64,000 bases of DNA from Chondrosia reniformis. Taxonomy: Eukaryota; Porifera; Demospongiae; Chondrillida; Chondrillidae. The stretch is taken from the NCBI GenBank assembly GCA_947172415.1, contig OX359196.1:2916501-2980500 (forward strand), read 5' to 3'. The first letter of the stretch is position 1, and each line of letters begins with the position of its first letter. Below are positions 9,736 to 57,482 of this stretch, piece after piece. A model generated the notes under the pieces. That model had not been told where the DNA came from, ran no database searches, and saw only the letters and a list, made by a program, of their open reading frames with translations. Both the position numbers and the translations under genes were made by a program.

Positions 9736-10066
9736 TCATAAAACTAGTACATATAACTAGTGCATCCAACCACTTACTAGAACACATATACAACAAATAC
9801 ATACAACTAGCACATACAACTAGAACATTCAACAAGTATATACATCTAGTTACTAGTACATATGAAAAATATACACAACTAGTACATACAAGTAGTACAT
9901 ATAACTACATACAACTAGTTCCAACAACTAGTACATACAACTAGTATATTCTGATAGTTACTAGTACATACAACTAGTACATACAGCAAGTACATAAAAC
10001 TAGTACATAAAACTAGTACATACAACCAGTACATTCAACTAATAAATACAACAAGCACCTACATCT

Positions 10067-10686
10067 ATGATAAGCAAAAGTATTCACTGGAAGATATTAC
10101 GCCAAACCAACCAAGGGACCGAAGTCTAATCTTGGCTGGTGGACCGAAGTCCTATTAAAAATGGCAACCAGTGATCGCCTCGCTAAGATGGAGGGCTGCA
10201 GTCTAAGCGAGACCGAGCGCTCACAATGAAAAAAGTGAATTAATTGCTCGGTCTCGCTTAGACTGCAGCCTTCCATCTTTGCTAATTATGAAACCACAAG
10301 TGTTTCACTTGTGGCTGATTAATAAGTGAAGACTGTCATCCAACTCACCATCATTGAAGTGTACCACACTGATGAGCCCAAATGAGGGCGAAACAGCTGT
10401 CTGTGGTTCTTTGATGAATTTTTTTCCATCTTGGATGACTGGAGGCCATCACCGGTTGCCATTTTTAATAGGACTTCGGTCCTCCAGCCAAGATTAGACT
10501 TCGGTCCCTTGGCTGGTTTGGTGTAATATCTTCCAGTGAATACTTTTGCTTATCATCCTAGCCTTTGCACAGCTCAGTGCAATTAACTCCCTCTTTTCAC
10601 ATACATCTCTAGAGACGCTCCCAAAGTCGAAAGATGAACCGTTACAAAGATAAGTTCGACGCAGGTAGAAGAAATCCTTATTCCAT
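10067..10686. mobile_element. HHR foldback element A, left ribozyme deleted
   Basis: Inverted arms start ATGATAAGCAAAAGTATTC and end GAATACTTTTGCTTATCAT (10556), followed by a 130-bp tail on the right only. The whole insertion is bracketed by the direct repeat CACCTACATCT at 10056-10066 and 10687-10697 (11 bp). A central hairpin near 10190-10275 has arms CTGCAGTCTAAGCGAGACCG and its complement. The right arm keeps a complete hammerhead ribozyme. The left arm jumps from GTGATCGCCT straight to GCTAAGATGG, so the block that holds the second ribozyme in element B is missing. No protein is encoded. The tail starts with a 7-nt spacer and the hairpin TTGCAC/GTGCAA (10565-10582). Confidence 0.88.
10363..10407 (+). 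ncRNA. Hammerhead ribozyme, element A right arm
   Basis: Stem I ACCACA (10363-10368) pairs with TGTGGT (10402-10407). The core is CTGATGA, then stem II GCCC/GGGC with loop AAATGA, then GAAA, then a 2-bp stem III (AC/GT) with loop AGCT, and cleavage triplet GTC. Predicted self-cleavage is after C10401. The short stem III is the minimal type I form known from PLE-associated hammerheads. Confidence 0.9.
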
Positions 10687-11705
10687 CACCTACATCTAGT
10701 TACTAGTATATACAACTAGTACATAATACAAGTAACTTAAACTAGTAAATAAAACTAGTGCTTAAAAAAATACACACAACTAGTACATACATGTAGTACA
10801 TACAACTAAATACACCTAATTCAAACAACTAAAACATACAACTAGTATATACTTAAAGTTACTAGTACATATAACTAGTACATACAACTTCTGCCTACAA
10901 CTAGTACATAAAACTATTACATGCAACTACCTACTAGAACATACAACTAGCACATAAAACTAGTACAGATAAGTACATACAACTAGTACATATAACTAGT
11001 ACATACAACTAGTACATACAAAAAGTAGATACAACAATTACACACAACTAGTACATACAACTAGTCCATATAACTACATACAAATTGTCCATACAGCTAG
11101 TACTTACAACTAGTAAATACAGATTGTTACTACTTCATACACCTAGTACATACAACTAATACATACAACTAGTACATACAACTAGTAAATACAACTAACT
11201 ACTAGTATATACTACTAGTACATAAAATTTGTACATTCAACGAGTACATACATCTAGTTCATAAAACTAGTACATATAACTAGTGCATCCAACCACTTAC
11301 TAGAACACATATACAACAAATACATACAACTAGCACATAAAACTAGAACATTCAACAAGTATATACATCTAGTTACTAGTACATATGAAAAATACACACA
11401 ACTATTACATACAAGTAGTACATATAACTACATACAACTAGTTCCAACAACTAGTACATACAACTAGTACATACAGCAAGTACATAAAACTAGTACATAA
11501 AACTAGTACATACAATCAGTACATTCAACTAATAAATACAACAAGCACCTACATCTATGATAAGCAAAAGTATTCACTGGAAGATATTACACCAAACCAG
11601 CCAAGGGACCGAAGTCTAATCTTGGCTGGGGGACCGAAGTCCTATTAAAAATGGCAACCGGTGATGGCCTCCAGTCATCCAAGATGGAAAAAAATTCATC
11701 AAAGA

Positions 11706-11750
11706 ACCACAGACAGCTGTTTCGCCCTCATTTGGGCTCATCAGTGTGGT
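11706..11750 (-). ncRNA. Hammerhead ribozyme, element B left arm
   Basis: Reading the minus strand: stem I ACCACA/TGTGGT, CTGATGA, stem II GCCC/GGGC with loop AAATGA, GAAA, 2-bp stem III with loop AGCT, triplet GTC. Predicted cleavage follows the C complementary to position 11712. It is identical in core and stems to the right-arm copy. Confidence 0.9.
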
Positions 11751-11996
11751 ACACTTCAATGATGGTGAGTTGGATGACCGTCTTCACTTATTAATCCGCC
11801 ACAAGTGAAACACTTGTGGTTTCATAATAAGCAAAGATGGAGGGCTGCAGTCTAAGCGAGACCGAGCGCTCACAATGAAAAAAGGGAGTTAATTGCTCGG
11901 TCTCGCTTAGACTGCAGCCCTCCATCTTTGCTTATTATGAAACCATTAATGATTAATAAGTGAAGACTGTCATCCAACTCACCATCATTGAAGTGT

Positions 11997-12041
11997 ACCA
12001 CACTGATGAGCCCAAATGAGGGCGAAACAGCTGTCTGTGGT
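11997..12041 (+). ncRNA. Hammerhead ribozyme, element B right arm
   Basis: Stem I ACCACA (11997-12002) pairs with TGTGGT (12036-12041). All core nucleotides (CTGATGA, GAAA, GTC) are present, with stem II GCCC/GGGC. Predicted cleavage is after C12035, in transcripts of the plus strand. Confidence 0.9.
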
Positions 12042-15000
12042 TCTTTGATGAATTTTTTTCCATCTTGGATGACTGGAGGCCATCACCGGTTGCCATTTTT
12101 AATAGGACTTCGGTCCCCCAGCCAAGATTAGACTTCGGTCCCTTGGCTGGTTTGGTGTAATATCTTCCAGTGAATACTTTTGTTTATCATCCTAGCCTTT
12201 GCACAGCTCAGTGCAATTAACTCCCTTTTTTCACATACATCTATCACAACTAGTTCGACGCAGTTAGAAGAAATCCTTATTCCATCACATACATCTAGTT
12301 ACTAGTATATACAACTAGTACATAATACAAGTAACTTAAACTAGTAAATATAACTAGTGCTTAAAAAAATACACACAACTAGTACATACATGTAGTACAT
12401 ACAACTAAATGCACCTAATTCAAACAACTAAAACATACAACTAGTATATACTTAAAGTTACTAGTACATATAACTAGTACATACAACTTCTGCCTACAAC
12501 TAGTACATAAAACTATTACATGCAACTACCTTCTAGAACATACAACTAGCACATAAAACTAGTACAGATAAGTACATACAACTAGTACATATAACTAGTA
12601 TATACAAGTAGTATATACATACAATTAGTACACACAACTAGTAAATATATATAACAACATACAACTACTACATGCAACTAGTACATATAACTAGCACATA
12701 CAACAATAGCACACAACTAGTACACACAACCTGTACGTTTATATAACTAATTACAACAAGTACATAAAACTAGTAAATACAACAAGTACATACAACTGGT
12801 ACTTACAACTAGTACATACATCTAGTAAATGCAACAATATATTACATACAACTAGTACTACAACTAGGACATAGAACTAGTACATACAAATAGTACATAC
12901 TAGAAACTAGTATATACATACAACTAGTAAAAAGAACTAGAAAATACAACTAGTACACACAACTAGTATATACAACTAGTACATACAACTAGTACTAAAA
13001 CTAGGTCACACAATTAGAACATAAAACTACTACATAGAAATAGTACATACAACAATAACCCACAACTAGTAAATACAACTAGTGTTAGTACATACAACTT
13101 GTGCATACAACTAGTACATGCAACTAGTAACGAGAACATACAACTAGTACATACAACTAGTACATGAAATTAGCACATGCAAATAGTCCATACAACTAGT
13201 ATATACAACTAGTACTACAACTAGTTCATAGAACTATTACATAGAACGAATACATAAAACTAGTTCATACCCCTAGAACATATGCAACTTGTACATATAA
13301 CTAGTACGTACAACTAGTAACTATTACATGCAACTAGTACAATCAACTAGAACATACTACTAGAACATACGACCAGTATATACAGCTAGTACATGCAACA
13401 AGTACAGATGACTTTTACACACACCTAGTTCAAACAACATGTACATACAACTAGTACATACAACTAGTACCTACAACTAGTACATATAACTGGTACCCAC
13501 AACCACTACATATAACCGGTACATACACATATAACTAGTGCATATAACTAGTACCTACAACTAGTACATACAACTAATACATACAACTTGTACATACAAC
13601 TAGTTCAAACAACTTTTAACACACCTAGTACATACAACTAGTAACTTGTACATACAAGTAGTACATACAACTATTATCTAGTGCATAAAACTAGCACCCA
13701 CCTAGGACCTAGTATAACCAGCACTAGAACCGACATCTTCTACACACAACTAGGACATACAACTAGTACAAACAACTAGTAACTAATATATACAACTATT
13801 ACATGCAACTTGTACACAAAACAAGTACATTCAACTAGTAAATATAACTATCCCACACCACTTGTACAAACAACTAGTAACTAGCATATACAACTAGTAC
13901 ATACAACTAGTACATACAACTAGTACACACAGCTAGTATACACAACTAGTTTAAAAAGCTAGTACATACAACTAGTACATACAACTAGTACAAACAGCGA
14001 GTTCATATAAGTAGTACATACAATTTTACACACAACCAGTACACTCAACTAATATACACAACTAGTTCATAAAACTAGTACATACAATTAGTACAAACAA
14101 CTCGTACAAACAACTAGTACATATGACTAGTACGTACAACTTTTACAAACGACTATTTCATAGAACTAGTACTTACAACTGGTACATAAAACTTGTCCTT
14201 ACAACTAGAACGTATGACAAGAACACAAACATTCAACTAGTACACACAACTAGTACATACAACTAGTACATATAACTAGTCCAAACAACTAGTTCATACG
14301 CCTAGTACTTACAACAAGTATAAAACTAGTACATACAACCAATACATACAACTAGTTCATTCAATTAGAACATACAACTAGCACTTATAACTAGTTCATA
14401 CAACTAGTACATTCAACTGGAAACTAGTACATACAACTAGTACATAGAAATAGTACATATATACAACTAGTACACACAGTTAGTACTTACAACTACTACA
14501 TACAACAAGTACATACAACTAGTACCTCCAACTCGTAAATATAACTAGTACTAGTTTGTTCAACTAGTGCATACAACTAGTAAATGCAACTCGTAAAGAG
14601 TGCATACAACTAGTACATAGAAATAAGACATATATACAACTGGTTCATACAATTAGAACATAAAACTACTACTTAGAAATAGTACATACAACAAGAACCC
14701 ACAACTAGTAAATATAAATAGTGTTTGTACATACAACTAGTGCATGCAACTAGTACATGCAACTAGTAACTAGTACATACAACTAATACATACAACTAGT
14801 ACTACAAATATTACATAGAACGAGTACATAAAACTAGTTCACACCCCTAGTACATACAACTAGTAACTAATACATACAACTGGTACATACAACTAGTACG
14901 TACAACTAGTAGATACAACTTGTACATACAACTAGTTCATTAAATTAGTACATGTAACTAGTATATATAAGTAGTACATATGACTATTTCAAACAACTAG

Positions 15001-22125: not shown

Positions 22126-22344
22126 ATATAGTTGTATGTACTAGTTGTGTGTAGTAGTTTTATGTTCGATATAATTATATGAACTAGTTGCATGTACTAG
22201 TTGTGTGTACTAGTTGCATGGACTAGTTATATGTACTAGCGGTAAGTACTAGTTGTATGTACTAATTGTATGTATTAGTTGTATGTACTAGTCGAAAGTA
22301 CTAGTTACTAGTTGTCTGTACTAGTGGTGTGGACTAGTTATATG
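22126..22344 (-). repeat. 13-bp satellite, reverse block upstream of the PLE
   Basis: Reverse 13-mers start at the second copy of the (TA)n flip junction (ACTAGTATATATATAGTTG) and run to the 3' end of the PLE insertion at GTTATATG/AAAAATC. Confidence 0.85.
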
Positions 22345-22489
22345 AAAAATCTAAGATACCATTTTCCTACATGCTATATGCCTATTCTGTAAAAAGAGCC
22401 TATAGGGGAACTAAACCTAAAGAGAGCTTTAGATGAAGATACAGTAGTCTTTTCTTCCTTCTTTTCCCTTCTTTCATCTTCTTCTCCAC

Positions 22490-22535
22490 TGGGCAGACAG
22501 CCGTTTCTGGGAATTCCACCCTTCATCAGTGATCC
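22490..22535 (-). ncRNA. Hammerhead ribozyme in the PLE 3' region (22.5 kb copy)
   Basis: On the minus strand: CTGATGA, stem II AGGG/CCCA-type hairpin with loop TGGAATT, GAAA, a 2-bp stem III (AC/GT) with loop GGCT, and GTC. The core spans 22496-22529. Stem I is damaged: GGATCA faces TGCCCA, with mismatches after two pairs. The fold is recognisable but activity is doubtful here. Confidence 0.75.
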
Positions 22536-22790
22536 TGGGAGTCTTTGTCTTTTTCTTTATCTTGATCTTCTGTGAATCCTTGGCTCACTATGCTAAATCT
22601 AGGGGCCTTATATACACTATTTTGGCGCCAAAAGTTAAATAAGGTGTTAACTAAGACACATGATGAAATTTAATTTTATGAAAGGAATGTAGGTCCATTT
22701 AACTTTTATGAATTAATTATAAATCCATTAGTAATCCTGCTTGTACAGGTAAAACAGACTCAGCATAACTATAGATACAAGTAGGACATA

Positions 22791-24630
22791 TTACGTAAGT
22801 CTACCCTTAGGTCTTCTAGTAGTAACATTTCTTGGGAGGTAGGGTAACACAATATGGGGTAACACAAGACAGTCCTTAAGCATACTAGCTACTTTTTGCT
22901 TATACTTGATTCTAACTAGAGGCTGCTGGGATAGGAAGGTTTTAAAGGTTGATTTTAGCTTAAAGTATTTGTAACCCTGCTTAATAAGCCTACTGCATAA
23001 CTGCAAACTTTTAACCTGAAAACTGGAGAAGTCATTACATATTCTAGAATACCTAATTAGTTGTGAAATAAAGACACCATAGGCTGGGGTATTAGGAATA
23101 TTACTATCTAAATGGGGAAATTTACTATATCAAAGTTAAATTCCTCTCGCTTATCATATACTTTAGTGATAAATTGATTGTTAGTAATGGTTATATCTAA
23201 GTCTAAAGAGGGGGATTTTTTAGGGCTGGTATTTGTCTTTTTAAGAATAAGTTCTTTGGGGTAAATATCACTAATTGACAGTTCAAAATCCTTGTTGTTA
23301 ATACATAAAAGGTCATCAATATACCTATAAGTATTGGAAAATTTAATAGCTAGGGTGATGTTATCCTTAAGTAGTCCTTTCATAAACTCATACTCATAGG
23401 CAAACAGAAAAAGATTAGCAACTACAGGGGCACAGTCAGTACCCATAGGGATACCTACACATTGCTTAAATACAGAACCGTCTACACATACATAAATGTT
23501 GTCAATAAGGTAATTAAAGAGCTCTACTAAATGAACAGCTGTGACTGCTTTATTGGAGACATTGTTAGACCAAAAGGCTTTATCCTGACAGACTTCTATA
23601 TATTGGGACTTTCTACAGGTATAGGCACTATAAATTAGGTTAGTAATCTTATCTTTAAGTAGGTTATGGGGGATCGCTGTATATAATGTAGAAAAATCAA
23701 AACTAGCTAGCTGGGCTTTTCTAGTGGGTATAGACCTAAGACTACCTAAGACTTCTAGTGAGTTTTCTACTATCCAAAAGGCATTAACACCAGTATTCCT
23801 ATATAAACCTAGGCAGTATTCTCTAAAATGTTTGAGAATTAGTCTGAGTGCCGAATTTAGAAATCTAGAAAGGGGTTTGGTAGTACATTTGTGAGAGGCG
23901 GCTATGAATCTGTAGCTGTAAGGGTTCTTATGTAGCTTAGGCATCCAGTAAAAAGAGGGAAGGTTACACCAGTCAGGTTTAGGTTCTAAGTTCTCTAGTT
24001 TTAAGAAATCCATGTGTTTCCTAATTAACTGTTGGGGTTCTACTGTACATTTAGCATAAGTGGAGGTACTGCCTAGTTCTTCATTAATATTTTGTCTATA
24101 GTAGGACTTACATATAAAAATTATATTATTAGAGGCCTTATCGGCAGGGGCTATAACATACTTATCATGTAGGTCTGCTAAGAATTTCTTAATTTTAGGG
24201 CAAGTAAGGGTCTTCTTGGCTACTGAGGATTTGGTATACTATTTAGACAGCTTAGAGATCCTATCATTAATTTTCTTAAGTACAGCATTTTCCCACTCAC
24301 TAAATACAGAAGTAGATACATTTTCTCTACGGGCCCAGGTAATCTTATATTTTCTAAGACCTTCCTTACACATTTTTAAAGCAGTTACCCAATTAAAGTT
24401 ATTAGGTTCTCTAAATTTTGGTCCTTTCTTAAGAAGTTTTCTAAGTTTTGGGTTACTAACAATACGTAGATCACCTGTTAAAACATGGCCTAGGGGCTTG
24501 TAAATGAAGGGGGACTTGTGACACTAACATGGTTCTGGTTTTCTAAAAACATCTGACTTAGAGGTTTGTGAAAAGTTAAAGATTTGAGGTCCTATTGGTT
24601 GGGTATACTTATATACTACACATGGGGCTC
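22791..24630 (-). pseudogene. PLE reverse transcriptase, broken
   Basis: The longest open part is 23108-24013 (301 codons). It has RT motifs in order: SFYWMPKLHKNP (residues 20-31, fingers), FDFSTLYTAIP (105-115, motif A with catalytic Asp106), GIPMGTDCAP (187-196, motif B) and YIDD (231-234, motif C with the catalytic Asp pair). The same frame continues upstream with [17 protein letters not shown] and GHVLTGDL, hallmarks of the PLE RT N-terminal region. It is interrupted by TAG codons at 24239-24241 and 24524-24526. Downstream, a frameshift near 23114 moves the thumb and C-terminal region into another frame (22791-23006 and just upstream). The methionine at 24013 is internal, not the true start. 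The enzyme would copy element RNA at a nicked target, but this copy cannot make it. Confidence 0.88.
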
Positions 24631-25540
24631 TTTGTTTTGTATAAAGGGTGGGACAGTTTCTAACACTAACTTTTGGTTTAAGATACCTGAGAGGCCTATT
24701 TTTTCTACACCTTTATTATGAAACACGATTTTAAGAAACCCTTCTGGACTTGTTGTTTTCGTTGGGTGTTTGGGAAGGCTGGCTGAAGCCCGTGCTTTAA
24801 TAACGTCTTTAATCATTAGCATAAGTCTAAGCGGAAAAGGTGTTTCTGGGGTATCGATGAGACATTGTACCGAGTTTAACAAACCATGAAGGTGTCGAGC
24901 TTGTAATGCAAAAGTATGGCGTTTAAGTTTGGCTAGAAAGCCCACGTTCTTGTAAAGTGGTAGTCGTTCTTTGAGCCATTCAGGGTCGTAGGCAGCGTTA
25001 TTACTACTGCCTTTCGATTCTAGATTGGAGCGCCGATGCCGTCTTTTATGAGATAAGCGATTAAAAAGGTTCCATACGATGATTTCTTTTTTAAGTTTTG
25101 AAATATTGCCAACGCCTTTAATGTTATCGTTAAGTCCATATGGGTAAATAGAGCAGAGTTCCTTATACCAGAACGCTTCTCTCAGTAGTCTGAGGCTAGT
25201 AGAATTAGGTGTCTCAGGTATCTGTTCTATGGGCATGATCAAGGCATCATCAAAACTATGGTTATCAGAATTAAAGTAATTGTAAAGATACAGTGGCTTA
25301 AAACCTTTGGTACTAGTCCTATGGTTGTTCATTCTACTCCTAAGCATCTTAGAGGTTTCTCCTACACACTGCACATCACATTGTTAACAAGTAATAAGAT
25401 ACACAACATTCCTACTCTGGCATCCTAGGGGACCACAAGGGCTACGGACTTGATAGGTCCTGCCAGTAACTGAACTCTTAAAAGTAGGGCCAGTAACTAA
25501 AGAGGGACATGTTTTACACTGCTTATTGCTACACTTCTTA
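24616..25540 (-). pseudogene. GIY-YIG endonuclease domain of the PLE, broken
   Basis: Translation of the minus strand gives a Cys cluster (KKCSNKQCKTC, then CGPLGC), NVVYLITC at the GIY position, and QCVGETSKMLRSRMNNHR, which matches the YIG strand and the conserved Arg helix. LREAFWYKEL follows with the expected catalytic Glu. The usual Gly of GIY is Val and the YIG tyrosine is Cys, so even the intact parts look inactivated. A TAA at 25384-25386 splits the two halves of the motif. The open stretch 24616-25374 begins only at a GTG after that stop. It ends by frameshift near 24620, beyond which the RT continues in another frame. The endonuclease would nick target DNA to prime reverse transcription. 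Confidence 0.85.
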
Positions 25541-28500
25541 ACTAGTACTAGTTGTATGTACTAGTTGTATGTACTAGTTGTATTTACTAGTTCTTTGTAC
25601 TAGTTGTATGTACTAGTTACTAGTTGTATGTACTAGTTGTATGTACTAGTTTTATGTTCTAGTTGTATAAACTACTTTAATGTTCTAGTTGAATTACTAG
25701 TTGTAATTACTGTTAGTAGTATGTTCTAGTTGTATGTACTATGAATATGTACTAGTTATATGTGTATGTACTCCTTATATGTACTAGCTGTATGAACTAG
25801 TTGTATGTACTAGTTATATGACCCAGTTTTATGTACTAGTGGGATGTACTAGTTTTATGTACTCGGTCTATGTACTAGTTCGATGTACTAGTTCTATGTA
25901 CTAGTTGTGTGTACTACTTGTATGTGCTAGTTGTCTGTACCTATTAAATGTCCTAGTGTTTGGTTCTAGTTGTTTGTACTACTTGTGTCTACCCGTTGTA
26001 TGTACTTGTTGTATGAACTAGTTGTATGTACTAGTTATATGTACTAGTTATATGTGTATGTACTAATTATATGTACTAGTTTAATGTACTAGTTATATGT
26101 TCTAGTTCTATTTACTAGTTGTGTTTAAAAGTTGTATGTACTAATTGTATGTACTAGTTTTATGTACTAGTTGTAAGTATTAGTTGTATATATGTACTAG
26201 TTATTAGCTGTAGGTACTACTAGTATGTACTAGTTATATATACTAGTTCCATTAACTAGTTGTATCTAAAAGTTTTATGTAGTAGTTGTATGTCCGAGTT
26301 GCATGAACTATTTCGATGTATTAGTTCTATGTACAAGTTGTATGTACTAATTTCTACTTGTATGTACTAGTTATAAGAACTAGATTTATATACTAGTTTT
26401 ATGTACTCGTTCTATGAACTAGTTTTATGTACTAGTTGTATGTACTATATGTATGTACTAATTGTCCCTATTAGTTGTATGTACTAATTGTATGTATGAG
26501 TTGTATGTACTAGTTCTATGTGCTAGTTGTATGTACTAATTGTATGTACTAGTTTATAGTTATATGTATTAGTTGTTTGTACTAGTTATAAGTTCTTTTT
26601 GTATGTACTAACTGTTTGAAATATTTGTATGCCCTAGTAGTACATTCTAGTTGTGTGTACTCTTTTTGTTCACTAGTTATATGGAAATGTCCTGGTTATA
26701 TGAACTAGTTGTTTGTACTCTTTATATGTAATAGTTATATGTGTGTGTACTATGTAAAGTTGTCTGTACTACTTTTATGGACTATTTGTATGTACTAGCT
26801 GTATGAACTAGTTGTAAATACTATTTATAAGTACTAGATATATGTTTATATACTAGTTACATGTACAAGCTGTATATCATAGTTATATCTTCTAGTTTTA
26901 TGAAATATTCCTAAGAACTAATTATATGTACTAGTTGTATGTACTATTTGTAAGTACTAATTGTATATACTAGTTGTATGTACTAGTTGTATATACTCGT
27001 TACTAGGTGCATGTACTAGTTGTATGTACTAACACTAGTTGTGATTACTAGTTGGAGTTACTAGTTGTATGTACTGATGGTATGTGGTAGTGGTATGTTC
27101 TAATTGTAGTGGGTAGTAGGTAGGTACTAGTTGAATGTACTAGGTAATTGTTGCATATACTAGTTGTATATGCTAGTTTTAAAAACTAGGTTTGTATACC
27201 AGTTGTATTTACTAGTTGTATGTACTAGTTGTATGTACTAATTGTATATACTAGTTATGTGTACTTGATCTATGTACTAGTTCTATGTTCAGGTTTCTAG
27301 TTGTAAGTACTTGTTCTATGTACTAGTTATATGTACTAGTTAAATGTACTAGTTTAATGTACTAGTTGTGTGTACTAGCTTTATCTACTAATTGTTGTGC
27401 ATAATATTTATGAGTACCAAGTATGTATTCTTTTATGTATGTACTAGTTATATATACTAGTTGTTTGAAATAGTCATATGTACTACTTATATATACTAGT
27501 TACATGTACTAATTTAATGAACTAGTTGTATGTACAAGTTGTATCTACCAGTTGTACGTACTAGTTGTATGTACCAGTTGTATGTAATAGTTACTAGTTG
27601 TATGTACTAGGGGTGTGAACTAATTTTATGTACTCGTTCTATGTAATATTTGTAGAACTAGTTGTATGTATTAGTTGTATGTACTAGTTACTAGTTGTAT
27701 GTACTAGTTGTGTGTACTAGTTGAATGTTTATGTTCTTGTCATACGTTCTAGTTGTAAGGACAAGTTTTATGTACCAGTTGTAAGTACTAGTTCTATGAA
27801 ATAGTCGTTTGTAAAAGTTGTACGTACTAGTCATATGTACTAGTTGTTTGTACTAATTGTATGTACTAGTTTTATGAACTAGTTGTGTATATTAGTTGAG
27901 TGTACTGGTTGTGTGTAAAATTGTATGTACTACTTATATGAACTCGCTGTTTGTACTAGTTGTATGTACTAGCTGTATGTACTGGTTTTTTAAACTAGTT
28001 GTGTATACTAGCTGTGTGTACTAGTTGTATGTACTAGTTGTATGTACTAGTTGTATATGCTAGTTACTAGTTGTTTGTACAAGTGGTGTGGGATAGTTAT
28101 ATTTACTAGTTGAATGTACTTGTTTTGTGTACAAGTTGCATGTAATAGTTGTATATATTAGTTACTAGTTGTATGTACTAGTTGTATGTCCTAGTTGTGC
28201 GTAGAAGATGTCGGTTCTAGTGCTGGTTATACTAGGTCCTAGGTGGGTGCTAGTTTTATGCACTAGATAATAGTTGTATGTACTACTTGTATGTACAAGT
28301 TACTAGTTGTATGTACTAGGTGTGTTAAAAAGTTGTATGAACTAGTTGTATGTACAAGTTGTATGTATTAGTTGTATGTACTCGTTGTAAGTACTAGTTA
28401 TATGCACTAGTTATATGTGTATGTACCGGTTATATGTAGTGGTTGCGGGTACCAGTTATATGTACTAGTTGTAGGTACTAGTTGTATGTACTAGTTGTAT

Positions 28501-35305: not shown

Positions 35306-35840
35306 TCTAGTTGTATGTACTGGTTGCATGTCCTAGTTGTATATATGTACTAGTTATATGTACTAGTTGTATACACTAGTTGTCTGATCTAGTTGTATGT
35401 ACTGGTTTTATGTACTAGTGTTATGTGCTAGTTAAATTTGCTAGAAGTAGATAATAGATGTATGATCTAGTTGTATGGACTGGTTGTATGTACATATAGT
35501 TTGTACTAGTTGTGTGGGCTAGTTGTAAGTACTAGTTGAATGAACTAGTTTTATTTGTATCTTTTAGGTTTATGTATTAGTTGAATCTACTAGTTGAATT
35601 TACTACTTGTAAGTACAAGTTGTAAGTACAGCTTGTATGTACAAGTAGTATGAACTAGTTGTAGGTACAAGTTGTATGAACTAGTTGTATCTCCTAGTTG
35701 TAAGTACAGGTTGTATGAACAAGTTGTATGTACTAGTTGTATGTACAAAGTGTATGTAGTAGTTATAATAACTCTATATAGATACCAGTTGTATGTACCA
35801 GATGTATGAACTAGTTGTATGTACTGAATATATGTATCGA
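35306..35840 (-). repeat. 13-bp satellite, reverse block adjoining the heptamer array
   Basis: Reverse 13-mers, nearly the same as 9113-9640. They end in CTGAATATATGTATCGATT, where the 7-bp satellite begins. Confidence 0.9.
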
Positions 35841-46282: not shown

Positions 46283-46365
<83 letters not shown>

Positions 46366-48168
46366 CGATTATCGATTATCGATTATCGATTGATTATTGA
46401 TTATTCATTAATGATTTTTCATTATTGATTATTGGTTATGTATGACAGGTTACTGATTATACATTTTGGTTATAAGTTATTAGTTATTAGTTGGTTTTTG
46501 TTTATTGATTATGGCTGATGGAATATCAATTATAGATCAGTGATTACTGAATATTGATTATTCATTATTCATTATTGGTTATTGATTATGTATGATTGAT
46601 AATTGATAATGGATTATGGGTTATTAGTTATTTGTTATTGGTTATTCGTCATTGTATATTGACTACGGATTATGGTTTATTGCTTATAGATTATCAATTA
46701 TGGATTTTCGATTTTCCATTAGTGATTATTGATTACGGAATATTGATTATTCATTATTCATTATTGAATATTGATTATGTATGATTGATAATTGATAATG
46801 CTTTATGGGTTATTGGTTTTTGGTTATTGGTATTCGTTATTGTTAATAGTTTATTGATTTTGGTTTATGAATTATTGATTATTGATTATTGATTATTGAA
46901 ACTTTATAATTAATTATGGATTATAGATTATGCATTATGGATAATGGAATATCGATTATTGATTAACCATTAACGTTGATCGATAATCGATTAATGATTA
47001 TTGATTATTGATTATTGATTTTAGACTATGCATTACAGATAATCGATTACCAATTTTCCATTATCAATTATTGATTATTGATTATGGTTAATCGATTATC
47101 GATTATTGATTATGGATTATGCATAATCGATTATCAATTATTGAATATGGATTATGGATAATCGATTATCAATTGTTGAATATATATTATTGATTATTGA
47201 ATATTGATTAGAAATTTTCGATTATCGATTATCGATTATTGATTATGGATTATTCATAACTGATTATTCAATATTGATTATTGATTATGCATGACTCTTT
47301 TTTCATAATGGATTTTGGGTTTTGGTTATTAGTTATTGGTTATTGTTTATTGTTTATTGATTATGGTTTATGGATTATCGATTATAGATTTTTGATAATG
47401 GATTATGGGTTATGAATTATCGATTATCGATTAGCGATTAATGATAATTGATTATGTATAATTGATTATTGATAATGGAATATGGGTTATTGGATATTGG
47501 TTATTGGTTATTGTTTATTGTTTTTCATTGTATATTGAATATTGATTATCGATTTTCGATTTTCGATTATGGATTGTCAATTATCGATTAGTAATGATTG
47601 AATACCGAATATTGATTATTGATTATTCAATATTGATTATTGATTATATGTGATTGAAAATTGAAAATGGATTATGGGTTATTGGTTATTGTTTATTGTT
47701 TTTTATTGTATATTGAATATTGATTATCGATTTTCGATTTTCGATTATGGATTGTCAATTATCGATTAGTAATTATTGAATACCGAATATTGATTATTGA
47801 TTATTCAATATTGATTATATGTGATTGAAAATTTAAAATGGATTATGGGTTATTGGTTATTGGTTATTGTTTATTGTTTTTTGATCCTGGAATATGGATA
47901 TTTGATTATAGATAATGTATTATTGATTAGTGGTTTTCCATTATGGATTTTCGATTATCGTTTATGGATTAAGGATCATTGATTGCAGATTATGAATAAT
48001 CGATTATCGATTATCGAATATGGATTAATGATTATTGGTAATGGATTATTCATTAATGACGATTCATTATTGATTATTGGTTATGTATGACAGGTTAATG
48101 ATTTTGCCTTTTGGCTATAAGTTATTAGTTATTAGTTATTGTTTATTGTTTATTGATTATGGATTATG
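35841..48168 (+). repeat. 7-bp satellite GATTATN, 12.3 kb
   Basis: A continuous array of GATTATT, GATTATG and GATTATC units with drifted forms (GGTTATT, TTTATTG, GATAATG). Runs of one type occur, for example about twelve GATTATG near 46283-46370 and about ten GATTATT near 44055-44135. A longer order is visible: TATGTATGATTGATTATTG recurs at about 35989, 36218, 36467, 36708, 37008, 37187, 38006 and 38508, usually 180-310 bp apart, followed by GGTTATTGGTTATTG, then TTTATTG, then GATTATGGATTATCG. The plus strand has little C outside GATTATC. Open frames here encode only DYGLWIM-type repeats and are not genes. Confidence 0.95.
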
Positions 48169-48219: not shown

Positions 48220-49759
48220 AACTACTACGTATTACCAGTATATATAAATAGTATATACATCGAAGTACATACTAATTGTATGTACTTTGTGTACATAAAA
48301 CTACAAGTACCAGTTGTGTGTACTTGTTGTATTTACTAGGTTTATGTACTAGTTGTACAGAGAAGTTGTATGTACTAGTTATATGTACTAGTAACTTTCA
48401 GTATATACTAGTGGTATGTATTAGTTGTTTAAATTAGTTGTATGTAGTTTTATGTACTAATTGTATGTACTAGTTGTATGTACTAATTGTTTGAACTAGT
48501 TGTATGTAGTTATATGTACTACTTGTATGTATTAGTTGTGTGTATTTTTCGTATGTACAGTTATATTTACTAGTTTGAGTTACTTGTTTTATGTACTAGT
48601 TGTATATACTAGTAACTAGATGTTTGTGCTTGTTGTATTTATTAGTTGAATGTACTGGTTGTATGTACTAGTTTTATGTACTAGTTTTATGGACTTGCTT
48701 TATATGTGTTTTAGGAAGTTGTGTGCACTAGTTTTATGGACTGGTTGTATATACTAGTAGTTAGTTGTATTTACTAGTGGAATGTACTAGTTGTATGTAT
48801 TAGTTGTATGTACTAGGTGTATGAAAGAGTAGCACTCTGTATTCACTAGTTGTAAGTACTAGCTTAATGGACAATTTGTATGTAGTTATATGGACTAGTT
48901 GTATGTACTGGTTTTGTGTAATTGTTGTATCCTTTTGTTATATGTACTAGTTGTATATTCTAGCTGTATGTACCATTTATATGTACTAGTTGTATGTACT
49001 AGTTGTATGTACTAGTTGTACATACTAGTAACTAGTTGTATGTATTAGTTGTATGTACTAGTTCTATGTACTAGTTCTATGTACTAGTTTTATGCATAAG
49101 CTGTATGTCCTAATTTTTTTACTAGTTTTATGTACTCGTTGTTTGAACTAGTTGAATGTAGTTATATGTACTACTTGTATGTACTATTTGGGTGAAATTT
49201 TTGTATGTACTAGTTATATTTACTAGCTGAAGTTACTAGGTTTATGTACTCGTTGTATGTACAAGTTGTATGTACTAGTATCTAGATGTATGTATTAGTT
49301 GTATGTACTAGTTGTATGTACTAGTTGTATGTACTAGTTGTATATATGTTCTAGTAAGTAGTTGTATGTACTATTTATATGTACTAATTGTATGTACTAG
49401 CTGTATGGACTAGTGTATCTACTATTTGTATGGACTAGTTGTGTGTACTCATTGTTTGAACTAGTTGTATGTAGTTATATGTACTACTTGTATGTACTAG
49501 TTGTGTGTATTTTTCGTATGTACTAGTAACTAGATGTATGTACTTGTTGTATGTACTTGTTGAATGTTGTAGTTGTATGTACGAGTTGTATGTACTTGTT
49601 GTAAATGTGTTCTAGTAAGTAGTTGGATGCACTAGTTATATGTACTAGTTTTATGAACTAGATGTATGTACTAGTTGAACGTACAAATTTTATGTCCTGC
49701 TTCAGAATCTGGAACTGCACTAGCCAAGGGATTGGGACAGATGTCGCTTGTCAATAATT

Positions 49760-49800
49760 ACCAAACGTTTTGACCCAATCTCGGGTCTTCATCAGTGGTA
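49760..49800 (-). ncRNA. Degenerate hammerhead-like motif in the PLE 3' region
   Basis: The minus strand reads CTGATGA, then hairpin GACCC/GGGTC with loop GAGATT, then AAAAC where GAAAC is expected, then a possible 2-bp stem III with a GTA triplet. The bases before CTGATGA (ACTACCA) do not pair with those after GTA, so stem I cannot form. It is probably a fossil or a non-cleaving relative. Confidence 0.4.
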
Positions 49801-50010
49801 GTGAGATTACAGGGCAAGGTGACTTATATATCGGTAGGGTGAGGGGCAGGTGAGATGACTGTGGGCGGGAAAATAATGGGCGGGAAACTGGGAGTGTGGG
49901 AGGTCACGTGAGGTAAATTTTATACAATAAGATAAAACAAACAGTGCAGTAAGTAAGGAATAAATAGGTAAATGAGAGAATGGATGGGTCAAGGGGTGGG
50001 TGGGGCTTGA

Positions 50011-50679
50011 CTAGTCTGTGGATCGAAGCTGGCGGACGAGGAGGTCATAAACTGGGGGGAGGTTGCCTTCATCTCTATTCATTGTGTTCAATTCAGATCG
50101 GATGTGCCACGATTCCAGCAGGCATCTCTGGTGATATTGCTGCTGAACATCCATCACTGTGGCACCCTCCCAGTCAATGTCGTGCGAATCCTCTGCAGCA
50201 TGCTCTGCCACTGCCGACTGTGCCAGGTGTCCACTCACTAGAGCCCGTTTGTGTTCCTTCAGCCGTTGGGCCAGTGTTCTGCCAGTCTGGCCTACATACA
50301 CTCTGGGGCAACCGTTGCAGGGGATCCTGTAGATCACCCCTGCCTTCTGTTGGAAAGGGACCCGGTCCTTCAAATTGACCAGTGCCTGTCTCAGAGTCCG
50401 GTGTGGTCTGAAGCAGGTACGGATCTTCAGCGGGGAGAGGATGCGCCGAATGGATTCTGACAGATGCTTAAAGTAAGGGATGACCACCACGGCTTTGGGA
50501 GTGTCCAGTTCATGAGGGGGAGTGGAGTGGGGTGTCGGGTGCCAGTTCTTCTTCACCAGTGCAGTGGGGTAACCATTGCTGTTGAGGGCTTCAGTGACCC
50601 GTCTCTTCTCAACATCTCTGTCTGGGGCACTCTCGCAGATACGATCTGCCCGGGTGAGTAGTGTCCGAGCCACTGCCAC
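50011..50679 (-). pseudogene. PLE linker plus C-terminal GIY-YIG endonuclease, 5'-truncated
   Basis: An uninterrupted frame of 222 codons from the insertion edge to a stop at 50011. Residues 1-110 are the post-RT linker typical of PLEs (VTEALNSNGYP, then PYFKHLSESIRRIL and FRPHRTLRQALV). Residues 114-119 GVIYRI and 127-134 VYVGQTGR are the GIY and YIG strands. A CNGC pair (121-124) lies between them, and LLESW contains the expected catalytic Glu at 189. The sequence keeps the key residues, unlike the other PLE. There is no genuine start codon: the frame opens at a GTG two bases from the insertion edge and the RT is missing, so it is a fragment of a once larger protein. The enzyme would have nicked DNA for target-primed reverse transcription. 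Confidence 0.85.
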
Positions 50680-51930
50680 TTTATGTCCTAGGAGTATGTA
50701 CTAGTAGTTAGTTGTATTTACTAGTTGTATGTACTAGTTGTATGTATTAGTTGTATGTACTAGGTGTATGAAGGTGTAACAATCTGTATTTACTAGTTGT
50801 AAGTACTAGCTGTATTTAAAATTTGTATGTAGTTATATGTACTACTTGTATATACTAGTTGTATGCAATTTTTGTATGTACTAGTTATATTTACTAGTTT
50901 GAGTTACTTGTTTTATGTACTAGTTTTATATACTAGTAACTAGATGTATGTGCTTGTTGTATTTATTAGTTGAATGTACTGGCTGTAGGTACTAGTTGTA
51001 TGTAATATTAACAAACTATATTTACTAAGTTAATGTACTAGTTGTATGTAGTAGCGGTAAGTACTAGTAATTAGTTGCAGGTACTGGTTATTTGTAATAA
51101 TTCTATGAACTAGTTGTATGTACTAGTGTATGCATTAGGAATAATCTGTATTTACTAATTCTGTGTACTAGTTGTAGGTACTAGTTGTATGTATATAATT
51201 TTAATAATACTAGTTGTATATACTAGTTGTGTGACATTGTTTTATGTACTAGTTATACGTACTAGTTGTATGTACTAGCTGTATGTACTAGTTATATGTG
51301 CTAGTTGTATGTCCTAGTTGTATGTATTAGTTGTAAATATGTACTAGTAACTAGTTGTATGTACTAGTTGTATGTACTAGTTCTCTGTATTAGTTTTAAG
51401 TACTAGTTGCAGGAAATTGATGTATTTACTAGTGTTATGTACCAGTTGTATGTACTAGTTTTATGAAATAGCTGTATGAACTTGTTATATGTACTAGTTG
51501 TATATAATAGTTGTATGTACGAGTTGTATGTACTGGTAACTAGTTGTATGTACTAGCTGCGTGTACTAGTTGTAGGTAGTTATATGTACTACTTGTATGT
51601 ACTAGTTGTGTGGATTTTTTGTATACTAGTTAAATTTACTAATTGTAGCTACTAGTTTTATGTAGTAGTTGAATGTACTAATAACTAAATGTGTGTAGTA
51701 ATTGTATGTACTAGTTGTATGTTCTAGTTGTATTTACTAGTTTTATGTACTAGCTGTATGTACTAATTGTATATGCTAGTTGTATGTACTAGTAAATAGT
51801 TGCCTGTACTAGTTATATGTACTAGTCGTATGTACTAGTTGTGTGTAATTGTTTTATGTAATTGTTATATGTACTAGTTGTATGTCATAATTGTATATTT
51901 TAATTGTATGTACTAGTAAGTAGTTGCATG

Positions 51931-52449: not shown

Positions 52450-54147
52450 ATGTACATGTTATATGTACTTGTTGTATGTACTGGTTTTGTGTAATTGTTG
52501 TATCCACTTGTTATATGTACTAGTTGTATGTTCTAGCTGTATGTACCTGTTATATGTACTACTTGTATGTACTAGTTGTATGTACTAGTTGTACATACTA
52601 GTAACTAGTTGTATGTATTAGTTGTATGTACTCGTTCTATGTACTAGTTCTATGTACTAGTTTTATGTATAAGCTGTATGTCCTAATTTTTTTACTAGTT
52701 TTATGTACTCGTTGTTTGAACTAGTTGAATGTAGTTATATGTACTACTTGTATGTACTAGTTGGGTGTAATTTTTGTATGTACTAGTTATATTTACTAGT
52801 TGTAGTTACTAGTTTTATGTTCTCGTTGTATGTACAAGTTGTATGTACTAGTATCTAGATGTATGTATTAGTTGTATGTACTAGTTGTATGTAATAATTG
52901 TATGTACCAGATGTATATACTAGGTGTAAGAACTAGTAACAATCTGTATTTAAAAGTTGTATGTACTAGTTGTAAGTAATTATATGTACTAGTTGTATTT
53001 ACTATTTGTGTGAACTTGTGGTATATACTAGTTATATGTTCTTGCTGTCTGTACTAGTTGTATGTACTAGTTGTATGTAATAATTGTATGTACCAGATGT
53101 ATATACTAGGTGTAAGAACCAGTAACAATCTGTACTTACTAGTTGTAGGGACTAGTTGCATTTACTTGTTGTATGTAGTAGTTGTATTTCCGTACTAGTT
53201 GTAAGAACTAGTAAGTAGTTGCATGTACTGGTTATATGTAACAGTTGTATGAACTATATAGTTGTATGTACCAGGTGTATGTATTAGTAACAATCTGTAT
53301 TTACTAATTGTATATACTAGTTGTATGTAATAATGTGTACTAGTTTTATGTGCTGGTTGTATGAAATTGTTGTATCCACTTGTTATATGTACTAGTTGTA
53401 TGAACTAGTTGGATGTACTATTTACTAGATGTATGTACTAGTTGTATATGTACTAGTACTATGTGTATAATAGTTTTATGTACTAGTTGTGTGAAATTGA
53501 TGTATGTACTAGTTATATGTACTCATTGTATGTACTAGCTATATGTACTAGTTATATGGACTAGTTGTATGTACTAGCTGTATGTACTAGTTTTATATAC
53601 TAGTTGTATGTACTAGTTATGTACGAGTTGTAAGTACTAGTTGTATGTACTAGTTGTATGTACTTGTTGTATATGTGTTCTAGTAAGTAGTTTTATGCAC
53701 TAATTTTATATACTAGTTGTATGTACTAGATGTATGTACTAGTTGGATGTTCTATTGTATGTAGTAGTTGAATGAACTAGTAAAAAGTTGCATGTTCTAG
53801 TTATATGGACTAGTTTTTTGAACTAGTTGTATATACTTGTTGTATATATGAACTAGTTATATGTACTAGTTGTGTGTACTGGCTGTATATAGTAGGTGTA
53901 TCTACTAGTAACTCTCTGTATGAACTAATTGTATTTACTAGTTGTATTTACTAGTTGTGTGTAGAAAAAATAGGGGAACTTTAAGATCTAAAGCCGATCT
54001 TAAAGCATCGATGTCATCATCATTTAACTCTGGGTATTACCCCTGCCCACTCATGTCCCCTGAGGAGCGCAATGAGCTAATGGGCGGAACCGAAGTTCGC
54101 TTGATGGGAACCGTAGTCTCCCCCTAGCCACTCAAAAAGATGCTCGA

Positions 54148-54192
54148 GCCATAGACAGCTGTTTCGTCCTTATTAGGACTCATCAGTATGGC
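54148..54192 (-). ncRNA. Hammerhead ribozyme, element C left arm
   Basis: Minus strand: stem I GCCATA/TATGGC, CTGATGA, stem II GTCCT/AGGAC with loop AATA, GAAA, 2-bp stem III with loop AGCT, triplet GTC. Predicted cleavage follows the C opposite position 54154. Compared with elements A and B, both strands of stems I and II have changed together. Confidence 0.9.
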
Positions 54193-54438
54193 ATGCGATG
54201 GAAGTTAGAGTGGATAGTCTGCTAATAAGAACTCCCAGAAGCTAAAAAGCTTGTGGTTTCCTTATCAGAAGATATCCGATACAGCCTAAGGTGTGGCTGA
54301 CCACTATTATGTTTTTTTCCATACTAGTGGTCAGCCACACTTATGGCTGTATCCCATATCTGCTGATAAGGAAACCACAAGCTTTTTAGATTCTGGGAGT
54401 ACTTATTAGCAGACTAGCCACTCTAATTTCCACCGAAT

Positions 54439-54483
54439 GCCATACTGATGAGTCCTAATAAGGACGAAACAGCTGTCTATGGC
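54439..54483 (+). ncRNA. Hammerhead ribozyme, element C right arm
   Basis: Stem I GCCATA (54439-54444) pairs with TATGGC (54478-54483). Core CTGATGA, GAAA and GTC are all present, with stem II GTCCT/AGGAC. Predicted cleavage is after C54477. Confidence 0.92.
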
Positions 54484-57482
54484 TTGAGCATCTTTTTGAG
54501 TGGCTAGCGGGAGACTCCGGTTCCCATCAAGTGAATTTCGGTTCGGTCCATTAGCTCATTGCGCTCCTCAGGGGACATGAGTGGGCAGGGGTAATACCCA
54601 GAGTTAAATGATGATGACAGAGTTGTGTGTAATTGTTGTATGTGCTGGTCATATATGTGTACTAGTTGTGCGTGATAATTTTACGTACTAGTTCTATGTA
54701 GTTGCATGTATGTACTGGTAACAATCTGTATTTAAATATTGTTTGGACTTGTTGTATGTACTAGTTGTTTGTAATTATATGTACTAGTTGTATGTACTAA
54801 TTGTGTGAAATTGTTATATGTACTAGTTATATGTACTAGTTGTAGGTACTAGCTGTATGTACTAGTTATATGTACTAGTTGGATGTACTAGCTGTATGTA
54901 CTAGTTGGATTATACTAGTAACTAGTTGTATGTACAAATTTTATGTACTAGTTCCATGTATTAGTTTTATGTACTAGTTGTAGGTACTAGTTGTATGTAC
55001 TAGTTGTAGGTACTAGTTGGATGTACTACTTGAATGTATTAGGTGTATATTTGTACTAGTAACTAGTTCTCTGTATTAGTTTTAAGTACTAGTTGCAGGA
55101 AATTGATGTATTTACAAGTTTTATATACTAGTTGTATGTACTAGCTATATATACTAGTTATAGGTCCTAGTTGTATGTACTAGTTGTATGAAATAGCTGT
55201 ATATATTAGTTATATGTCCTAGTTGTATGTACTAGTTGTATGTACTAGTTGTATGAAAAAGCTGTATGTACTAGTTATATGCACTAGTTGTATATAATAG
55301 TTGTATGTACTAGTTGTATGTACTTGTAACTAGTTGTAGGTACTAGCTGTGTGTACTAGTTGTATGTAGTTATATATACTACTTGTATGTACTAGTTGTG
55401 TGGATTTTTTGTATACTAGTTAAATTTTACTAGTTGTAGCTACTAGTTTTATGGAGTAGTTGAATATACTAATAACTAAATGTGTGTAGTAATTGTATGT
55501 ACTAGTTGTATGTTCTAGTTGTATTTACTAGTTGTATGTACTAGTTGTATGTACTAATTGTATATACTAGTTGTATGTACTAGTAAATAGTTGCCTGTGC
55601 TAGTTATATGTACTTGTTGTATGTAAAAGCTGTATGTACTAGTTATATATATTAGTTGTATGTACTTTTTGTATGTACTAATTGTATGTGCTAGTTGTAT
55701 TAACTAGTTCTATGTCCTAGTTTTATATACGAGCTTTATGTACTATTTGTATGTACTAGTAATGTGTCCTAGTTGTAGTACTAGTTGTATGTAATATATA
55801 GTGGCATGTACTGGTTGTACGCACTAGTTGTAAGTACCAGTTGGATGTACTTGTACTATTTACTAGTTTTATGTACTAGTTGATATAGTTGTTGTATGTT
55901 GATATATATATTTACTAGTTGTGTGTACTAATTGTATGTATATACTAGTTGTATATACTAGGTATATGTACTAGTTGCATGTACTTATCTGTACTAGTTT
56001 TATGTACTAGTTGTACGCAGAAGTTGTATGTACTAGTTATATGTACTAGTATATACTAGTTGTATGTATTAGTTCTTTGAATTAGTTGTATGTAGTTGTA
56101 TTTACTACTTGTATGTACTAATTGTGTGTATTTTTTGTAAGTACTAGTTATATTAACTAGTTTGAGTTACTTGTTTTATGTACTAGTTGTATGTGCTTGT
56201 TGTATTTATTAGTTGAATGTACTGGTTGTATGTACTAGTTGTATGTACTAGTTTTAGGTACTAGTTTTATGTACTTGCTTTATATGTGTTGTAGGAAGTT
56301 GTGTGCACTAGTTTTATGGACTAGTTGTATGTACTAGATGTATATACTAGTTGGACATACTAGTAACTAGTTGTATGTATTCATTGTATGTACTATATAG
56401 TTCTATATACTAGTTCTATGTACTAGTTCTATGCATAAGCTGTATGTACCTAATTTTTTTAAACTAGTTTTATGTACTAGTTGTTTGAACTAGTTGAATG
56501 TAGTTATATGTATTACTTGTATGTGTTAGTTGGGTGTAATTTTTGTATGTACTAGTTATATTTACTAGTTGTAGTTAGTAGTTTTATGTACTTGTTGTAT
56601 GTACAAGTTGTATGTATCAAGATGTATGTATTAGTTGTATATGTTAGAAGTATGTACAAGATTTATGAACTAGTATCTAGATGTATGTATTAGTTATATG
56701 AACTAGTTTTATGTACTAGTTGTATTTCTAGTATGTAGTTGTATGTACTAGTTATATTTACTAATTGTGTGTACTAGATGTATGGACTAGTGTATGTACT
56801 AATTGTATGTTCTAGTTGTATGTACTAGTAACTATGAGAATATACTAGTGGTATGTAATAGGAACTAGATGTATGTACTTGTTGTGTGTGCTACTTGTAT
56901 GTACTTGTTGTATATATGTTCTAGTAAGTAGTTGGATGCACTAGTTATATGTACTAGTTTTATGAGCTAGATGTATGTACTAATTGAATGTACAAACTTT
57001 ATGTACTAGTAGTATGTACTAGTTGTATGTACCAGTTGTACATACTAGTTGTACATACTAGTAACTAGTTGCATATATTAGTTGTATGTACTAGTTCTAT
57101 GTACTAGTTTTTTGTATAAGCTGTATGTACTAGTTATATTACTAGTTGTGGTTACTAGGTTTATGTACTAGTTATATGAACTAATTGTATGTACTAATTG
57201 TGTGTAATTGTTGTATGTATTACTTATATTTACTAGTTGTAGTTACTAGTTGTATGTAGTAGTAACTAATTGTATGTACTACTTGTATGTACATGTTGTA
57301 TGTACTAGTAGTATGGACTAGTTGTATGTACAAGTTGTCTGTACTAATTGTATATACTAGTTACTAGTTTTATGTTCTGGTTGTATGTAGTAGTTCTATG
57401 TAGTAGTTTTTTATACTAGATGTATGTACTAGTTGTATGTAGTTATAGGTACTACTGGTATGTTCTAGTTGTGTGTATTTTT

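What the first reader, a model, noticed from the sequence alone, without database searches (positions are those of the whole stretch)
53964..54620. Foldback elements with opposed hammerhead ribozymes: a candidate new element class
Seen: elements B and C carry one complete hammerhead on each strand, in inverted arms, so RNA from either strand should self-cleave once. Insertions A/B and C have 11-bp flanking duplications, and a one-sided tail that begins with a 7-nt spacer and a hairpin. Established: hammerheads occur in PLEs and in direct-repeat retrozymes. Inference: an inverted ribozyme pair plus a non-symmetric tail and an 11-bp duplication does not fit any class I can name. It might be mobilised in trans by a PLE or by a DNA transposase.
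Basis: partly seen in the sequence, partly recalled or inferred. Interest (0 to 1): 0.9.

Follow-up and report, generated by a model that had tools for sequence, protein, structure and literature searches.

The report
Retrozymes carrying a Penelope-type insertion scar
These are small self-cutting RNA parasites of an animal genome whose DNA copies carry the insertion scar of Penelope-like jumping genes, which points to the enzyme that may copy them, so far only guessed.

Summary
Element C (53964-54620) has 300-bp inverted arms, one Rfam-level type I hammerhead per strand, an 11-bp target duplication and a one-sided 48-nt tail with a hairpin.

The class is not new. It is an animal non-LTR retrozyme: a non-coding unit of about 350 nt (arm plus tail) with a type I hammerhead. 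The genome holds 227 matches to this hammerhead pattern, 0 to the reversed one. Units also occur in direct tandem.

What looks new is the insertion mode. In 23 of 23 target-duplicated insertions with two canonical outward ends (duplicates grouped), one end lies just 3' of the tail hairpin and the other just 5' of it. Two families, alike only at the hammerhead, share this geometry. It matches the head-to-head, one-tail signature published for Penelope-like elements, whose reverse transcriptase starts at two sites bounding the tail. A canonical Penelope-like family here forms 15 such outward pairs; the one read has a tail on one side only.

I conclude that Penelope-type machinery inserts retrozymes in trans, probably from circular or multimeric RNA. 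The opposed ribozymes are a by-product, predicted to be trapped in the hairpin. The exact partner and in vivo RNA are untested.

The parts
53953..53963 (.). target-site duplication, left copy, AGTTGTGTGTA
   Evidence: exact 11-nt match to 54621-54631
53964..54011 (-). tail of element C: 7-nt spacer, 9-bp hairpin, GTTCCCCTATTTTTTC; outer end is the T end (RT start 3' of the hairpin)
   Evidence: hairpin conserved in 57 tails
54012..54311 (-). sense arm of the unit on the minus strand
54148..54192 (-). type I hammerhead ribozyme
   Evidence: Rfam RF00163, 37.1 bits, gathering 34
54312..54319 (+). 8-nt centre (TTTTTTTC): end of a tail T-run, so the right-hand cDNA ran past the unit start
54320..54619 (+). 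second arm, sense on the plus strand; outer end is the A end (RT start 5' of the hairpin), no tail
54439..54483 (+). type I hammerhead ribozyme
   Evidence: Rfam RF00163, 37.1 bits
54621..54631 (.). target-site duplication, right copy
10056..10066 (.). left target duplication of element A, CACCTACATCT
   Evidence: 10 of 11 identical to 10598-10608
10067..10597 (+). element A (B family): truncated inverted arm, sense arm, tail 10557-10597; one hammerhead 10363-10407 (+)
11557..12231 (+). element B: inverted arm 11557-11867, sense arm 11884-12190, tail 12191-12231; hammerheads 11706-11750 (-) and 11997-12041 (+); flanking CACCTACATCT 11546-11556 and CACATACATCT 12232-12242
49699..50679 (-). 5'-truncated canonical Penelope-like element (PLE2) with C-terminal GIY-YIG ORF and a hammerhead-like motif (by eye); 10-bp duplication AGGACATAAA at 49689-49698 and 50680-50689
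22342..25545 (-). second Penelope-like element (PLE1): GIY-YIG-like ORF 24616-25383 upstream of RT ORF 23108-24238, hammerhead motif 22503-22529

Best explanation
Elements A/B and C are copies of two families of an animal non-LTR retrozyme, a non-coding repeat unit of about 350 nt with a type I hammerhead. They were inserted by the machinery of a Penelope-like element acting in trans. The target is cut with a stagger of about 10-16 nt. One target strand primes reverse transcription just 3' of the tail hairpin (T site). The other strand primes just 5' of it, 7-8 nt before the stem (A site). Both cDNAs copy sense RNA, so their 3' ends of the unit face outwards, and they are joined in the middle at variable points. 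This makes a head-to-head 'foldback' with one tail. The template was continuous across the unit junction and the hammerhead cleavage point, so it was a ligated circle or an uncleaved multimer rather than a linear cleaved monomer. Shown here: anatomy, end rule, target duplications, and the same architecture in a canonical PLE of the same genome. Inferred: PLE protein as the agent, circular or multimeric template, strand assignment of the two starts. Not shown: which PLE family is the partner.
For: (1) 66 grouped rows; 30 have a direct repeat of 10 nt or more at the ends, against 15 of 392 pairings of flanks from different loci. (2) Of those 30, 23 have two canonical outward ends, and all 23 are one T plus one A; none of the 30 is TT or AA. 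Three of the 23 (L071, L072, L091) have repeats in simple or satellite sequence; without them it is 20 of 20. (3) Families C and B align significantly only over 46 nt at the hammerhead, yet both have 7-8 nt from A site to hairpin and 15-17 nt from hairpin to T end. (4) Tandem junctions are near-uniform within a family and tails are read through; single cDNAs sum to 690, 718 and 799 aligned nt, about two units or more; 0 of 50 inner cDNA ends lie within 5 nt of the cleavage point. (5) PLE2: 15 outward pairs of 3' ends, 14 with the same two distinct end points. In the one pair read, a 30-nt tail is on one end only, with a 15-bp duplication. The window copy has a 10-bp duplication. (6) Published: PLE RT initiates at two adjacent sites bounding the tail and cleaves both strands (PMC11167929); rotifer Penelope has inverted pLTRs, a 31-bp tail on one of them, and, where present, duplications of 8-10 bp (PMC3846280 passages).
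Against: No PLE whose 3' end matches the retrozyme tail was found; PLE2's tail is a different, AC-rich sequence (one copy). PLE1 shares only hairpin + AGTTCCCCTAT, about 70-80 nt before its own 3' end, and appears in simple truncated copies with repeats of 0-8 nt. Not every insertion is head-to-head: among the 30 there are 3 with one A end and a 5' end and 2 with one T end and a 5' end; the repeats of two of these (L037, L088) lie inside the arm and are not target duplications. Of 66 grouped rows 36 lack a repeat of 10 nt; these include one TT (L055) and three AA (L083, L084, L087). Two of the 30 have an internal A-type boundary (274 in L056, 275 in L022). 16 of 46 PLE2 3' ends are unpaired. 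Tandems could also come from template jumps. No RNA data.
Confidence: 0.82

Rival explanations
1. Snap-back: one cDNA is made from the tail, folds back on itself and copies the arm a second time, giving a symmetric hairpin.
For: C (counted through its sister copy L040) and L009 have symmetric centres, both arms reaching position 1. Self-priming was proposed for rotifer Penelope palindromes (PMC3846280 passage).
Against: Only these 2 of 25 head-to-head junctions have both arms ending at the same place; others meet at, for example, 276 and 73, 125 and 186, 270 and 98. Snap-back does not explain why the second arm stops at the A site.
Confidence: 0.08
2. Twin priming by a LINE-type element rather than a PLE.
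For: Two outward cDNAs and variable-length duplications are also products of twin priming (recalled).
Against: Both starts are at fixed sites flanking a hairpin, and there is no poly(A) end in the tails seen. A PLE in the same genome shows the same two-end rule. I did not search the genome for LINEs.
Confidence: 0.07
3. A foldback/MITE-like DNA transposon that captured a hammerhead and moves with a transposase.
For: Inverted arms and a target duplication.
Against: The two termini differ (tail against no tail), the arms vary in length, direct tandem units occur, and duplications vary from 10 to 16 bp among those counted. I did not search for transposases.
Confidence: 0.02
4. PLE1 (GIY-YIG-like ORF upstream of the RT) is the partner rather than a canonical PLE like PLE2.
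For: PLE1's 3' region holds a hairpin followed by GTTTAGTTCCCCTAT; the C tail has a hairpin followed by GTTCCCCTAT. PLE1-type hammerheads are the commonest in the 100 places listed.
Against: The seven PLE1 copies examined show repeats of 0-8 nt and no head-to-head two-end structure. In one search two of 42 matches have an opposite-strand neighbour, but with the 3' ends facing each other, not outwards.
Confidence: 0.2

Closest known systems
Animal non-LTR retrozymes with type I hammerheads (Cervera and de la Pena 2020, PMC7229834)
   Same: Non-coding unit of about 350 nt (published RNAs about 170-400), type I hammerhead, tandem copies, GC 45.7% and 43.4%, target duplications longer than 4 bp
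   Different: Head-to-head arrangement with one tail, two fixed start sites and a hairpin between them; not described in the passages I read. In that paper PLEs are 'a strong candidate' mobiliser, from co-existence and shared features
Penelope-like elements: Poseidon of Anolis (PMC11167929) and Pen families of Adineta vaga (PMC3846280)
   Same: Inverted arms head-to-head, tail on one end, tail bounded by two RT starts at a stem-loop, duplications of similar size; hammerhead in the Anolis repeat
   Different: No RT or endonuclease encoded; the unit is small; the tail sequence differs from that of the one PLE2 copy read
Plant LTR retrozymes (PMC4918200, listing only; described in PMC7761336 passages)
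   Same: Non-autonomous, hammerhead, circular RNA model
   Different: Type III hammerhead, LTRs, PBS and PPT, 4-bp duplications

Membership tests
Animal non-LTR retrozymes | Type I hammerhead in the repeat | tested here: met
   Rfam RF00163 above gathering
Animal non-LTR retrozymes | Non-coding unit of about 170-400 nt in tandem copies | tested here: met
   C unit 348 nt in the window, tandem period 350-355; B family tandem period 359-363, one 338; longest stop-free run 61 aa (C) and 100 aa (B) on the tripled piece; direct tandem units
Animal non-LTR retrozymes | Target duplications longer than the 4 bp of plant LTR retrozymes | tested here: met
   10-16 bp among those counted, 10 being my lower limit
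Animal non-LTR retrozymes | Circular RNA in tissue; self-cleavage in vitro | not testable with these tools
   no RNA data; only indirect evidence from multi-unit cDNAs
Penelope-like insertion signature | Head-to-head inverted repeats with the tail on one end | tested here: met
   23 of 23 two-ended insertions with a repeat of 10 nt or more
Penelope-like insertion signature | Tail lies between two RT start sites at a stem-loop | tested here: met
   A and T ends flank a hairpin in both families; inferred from DNA ends, not from RT assays
Penelope-like element (as a member) | Encodes RT and GIY-YIG endonuclease | tested here: not met
   no long ORF in the unit; non-autonomous
Non-autonomous partner of a named PLE | Shares the 3' tail with that PLE | tested here: inconclusive
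   PLE2 tail differs in the one copy read; PLE1 shares 11 nt after a hairpin but not its end; other PLE families not read
Foldback DNA transposon / MITE | Identical termini and fixed duplication length | tested here: not met
   T and A termini differ; lengths vary

The most novel reading that the evidence does not exclude
A dimer of Penelope-type reverse transcriptase grips one hairpin of a circular retrozyme RNA. One protomer always starts on its 3' side from one target strand, the other always on its 5' side from the other strand. Two enzymes then run one behind the other round the same circle and produce the obligate one-tail, head-to-head insertion. That would make the strict T/A rule a general law of Penelope transposition and the retrozyme its smallest natural substrate.
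Probability: 0.3. Interest if true: 0.85.

Novelty: new variant of a known kind. Interest (0 to 1): 0.64.

Why it matters
Who mobilises animal retrozymes was argued from co-existence and shared features (PMC7229834 and PMC7761336, passages). [quoted passage not shown] This turns the question into a direct test: purified PLE protein plus a retrozyme RNA of about 350 nt. The one-T-one-A rule also adds to the in vitro result, where no difference in start site between strands was seen: in the genome, each two-ended insertion counted uses one of each. Two short defined start sites around a hairpin make retrozymes a compact natural template for studying a poorly understood class of eukaryotic retroelements.

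Tried and rejected
New class and DNA transposition: rejected (different termini, variable duplications, tandem units). Two independent insertions facing each other: rejected (one duplication encloses both arms). Snap-back as the general route: rejected (2 of 25 centres symmetric). PLE1 as an obvious partner: the shared hairpin + AGTTCCCCTAT looked promising, but PLE1 ends elsewhere and the copies seen lack the signature. A hoped-for autonomous relative with the same tail: 72 exact C-tail motifs, 38 of them more than 1.5 kb from the C copies I compared with. The single one read (L103) is a tail fragment whose upstream 143 bases gave no second match, so this led nowhere. An empty site for C cannot be shown cleanly: the joined flanks match 154 places in the window at up to 3 mismatches, eight of them at 1 mismatch and one being C's own right flank. 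I first took both units as 348 nt; for B that figure only reflects where I cut the piece, and one search corrects it (period 359-363). Sequence selection: of 227 hammerhead places 100 are listed, and loci were cut for 30; others came by similarity to C (30 loci, several of one place), or by listed place (20 stretches). Intact-core counts (36 of 41 C arms, 10 of 10 B arms) are therefore biased towards intact ribozymes. Clusters with a best hit under 110 bits were dropped; duplicates were grouped by eye. In one search the AA rows are L083, L084 and L087, all without a repeat of 10 nt; by eye L083 and L087 have a worn tail beside one end.
Full report
What is there. The window is G000:C8:2916501-2980500 of a 117,379,552-base assembly in 15 contigs. 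It is probably the kidney sponge Chondrosia reniformis: the start of the abstract in a search listing gives 117.37 Mb, 14 chromosomes and a mitochondrial genome (PMC12181767). Elements A, B and C lie in a 13-bp satellite. A and B share a duplication that is 10 of 11 identical and look like one insertion duplicated locally.

How many, and what unit. The hammerhead pattern with the AGCTGTC end occurs 227 times in the assembly and never when read backwards. Element C as a query found 171 matches, a lower bound. Reading stretches around copies shows that the repeat unit is arm plus tail (300 + 48 in C), also found head-to-tail...CTATTTTTTC then CATACTAGTGG or CATATTAGTGG (C family), and ...CTCCCTTTTTTCA then TTGTGAGCGC or a near form (B family). 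The C unit is 348 nt in the window and 350-355 nt between neighbouring hammerheads in tandem copies; the B family repeats at 359-363 nt, once at 338. GC is 45.7% and 43.4%, with no long ORF. C and B align significantly only over 46 nt at the hammerhead.

The end rule. Outer ends were called for 85 rows, 66 after grouping copies that share flanks. Thirty have a direct repeat of 10 nt or more at the ends. The same finder on flanks of different loci gives 15 of 392. Among the 30, 23 have one T end (just after the T-run that follows the hairpin) and one A end (arm position 290-307, just before the tail). Two have a T end with an arm boundary short of that (274 in L056; 275 in L022, where the repeat lies 14 nt further out). 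Three have an A end and a 5' end, two a T end and a 5' end; there is no TT and no AA. Under equal and independent use, 23 of 23 has a probability near 1e-7; that is a rough yardstick. Weak points: the repeats of L071, L072 and L091 lie in simple or satellite sequence, and those of L037 and L088 lie inside the arm. The other 36 grouped rows have no repeat of 10 nt: many are old, cut short or of one orientation. Over all 66 the classes are AT 30, TT 1, AA 3, and 32 with a 5' or internal end.

The tail. In 57 C tails the nine stem pairs form in 52 to 57 cases each, with few changes, so it is conserved rather than proven by covariation. The better argument is between families. The B tail has another sequence, but again about 8 nt from the A site to a hairpin and 15-17 nt from the hairpin to the T end.

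The template. Inner ends of the two cDNAs vary. Of 50 ends at 25 head-to-head junctions, none lies within 5 nt of the hammerhead cleavage point. Eleven are at the start of the unit, partly an effect of where my query starts. Single cDNAs of 718 nt (L045), 690 nt (L046) and 799 nt (L056), summed over aligned pieces, span about two units or more. This fits a ligated circle or an uncleaved multimer. It does not by itself prove a circle, since template jumps could also give tandems.

Comparison with Penelope-like elements. The window holds two. PLE2 (49699-50679, minus) has a C-terminal GIY-YIG domain (Pfam E 2.2e-4, just under the curated cut-off) and a 10-bp duplication. Of 50 matches to its 3' region (40 of 75 candidates scored), 46 reach the 3' end. 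These form 15 outward pairs and leave 16 ends unpaired; one inward-facing pair was seen, made of ends of two neighbouring copies. In 14 of the 15, one end stops at query position 343 and the other at 346; the fifteenth has 346 and 351. Two of these pairs look like copies of each other. I could read one pair (L101, L102): the end listed with 346 continues into a 30-nt tail, the end listed with 343 does not, and a 15-bp sequence follows both. So a canonical PLE of this genome inserts with the same architecture. PLE1 (22342-25545, minus) has a GIY-YIG-like ORF (no Pfam hit; my reading of the motif) upstream of an RT ORF (RVT_1, E 7.5e-6, below cut-off), an order recalled for the Naiad/Chlamys clade (Craig et al. 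2021, not held). The seven copies examined look simply truncated, with repeats of 0-8 nt.

Literature seen. PMC11167929: three of four parts of the text read. RT initiates at two adjacent sites bounding the tail; both strands are cut and extended; HHR mutants do not affect insertion in vitro. PMC3846280: passages: inverted pLTRs, 31-bp tail optionally on one of them, duplications of 8-10 bp in some copies and none in others, palindromes read as self-priming. PMC7229834: first part of six and passages; PMC7761336: passages: animal retrozymes, with PLEs as candidate mobilisers from co-existence and shared features. Searches (no paper) listed no paper whose title or abstract start, as shown, reports head-to-head retrozymes or a PLE tail in retrozymes. 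The held library covers open-licence papers only.

Function of the opposed ribozymes. In the minimum-energy fold of the whole element on either strand the ribozyme is paired with the other arm. Simple foldback copies such as C are therefore more likely dead ends than double-acting ribozymes; copies with two direct units could release a monomer. This is a prediction.

Verdict. The element works like, and by the features that could be tested is, an animal non-LTR retrozyme. Its insertions meet the published PLE signature. The claim that a PLE protein did it is an inference from that signature, strengthened by PLE2 in the same genome, and the specific partner is open.

Noticed in passing
G000:C4:3837454-3838563: Four B-type hammerheads in the same direction at 359-nt spacing: a longer direct array of units; not read.
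   Followed up: no
L084:1990-2130: The A end of a multi-unit retrozyme directly abuts the 3' part of a PLE1 copy in opposite orientation; chimeric insertion or neighbours, no target duplication found.
   Followed up: partly
G000, 38 places listed: Exact C-tail motifs without a compared C copy within 1.5 kb; the one read is a tail-only fragment in DNA with no second match.
   Followed up: partly
G000 whole: The broad pattern CTGATGA..GAAAC occurs 4681 times against 448 for the reversed control; in the 100 places listed PLE1-type (CTGATGAAGGGTGGAATTCCCAGAAAC and near forms) and CTGATGAAGACC-type motifs are common.
   Followed up: partly
window 35835-48167: A 12-kb array of the 7-mer TATTGAT, between blocks of the 13-bp satellite that occur in both orientations.
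   Followed up: no
G000:C11:3692642-3692927 and C13:2726735-2727120: Very short head-to-head PLE2 copies (285 and 385 bp), foldback-like themselves.
   Followed up: no
window 53964-54631 and 11 held loci on C8, C9 and C12: One retrozyme insertion copied many times together with its satellite flanks; some copies hold an extra inverted unit (L062 type), others not (C).
   Followed up: partly
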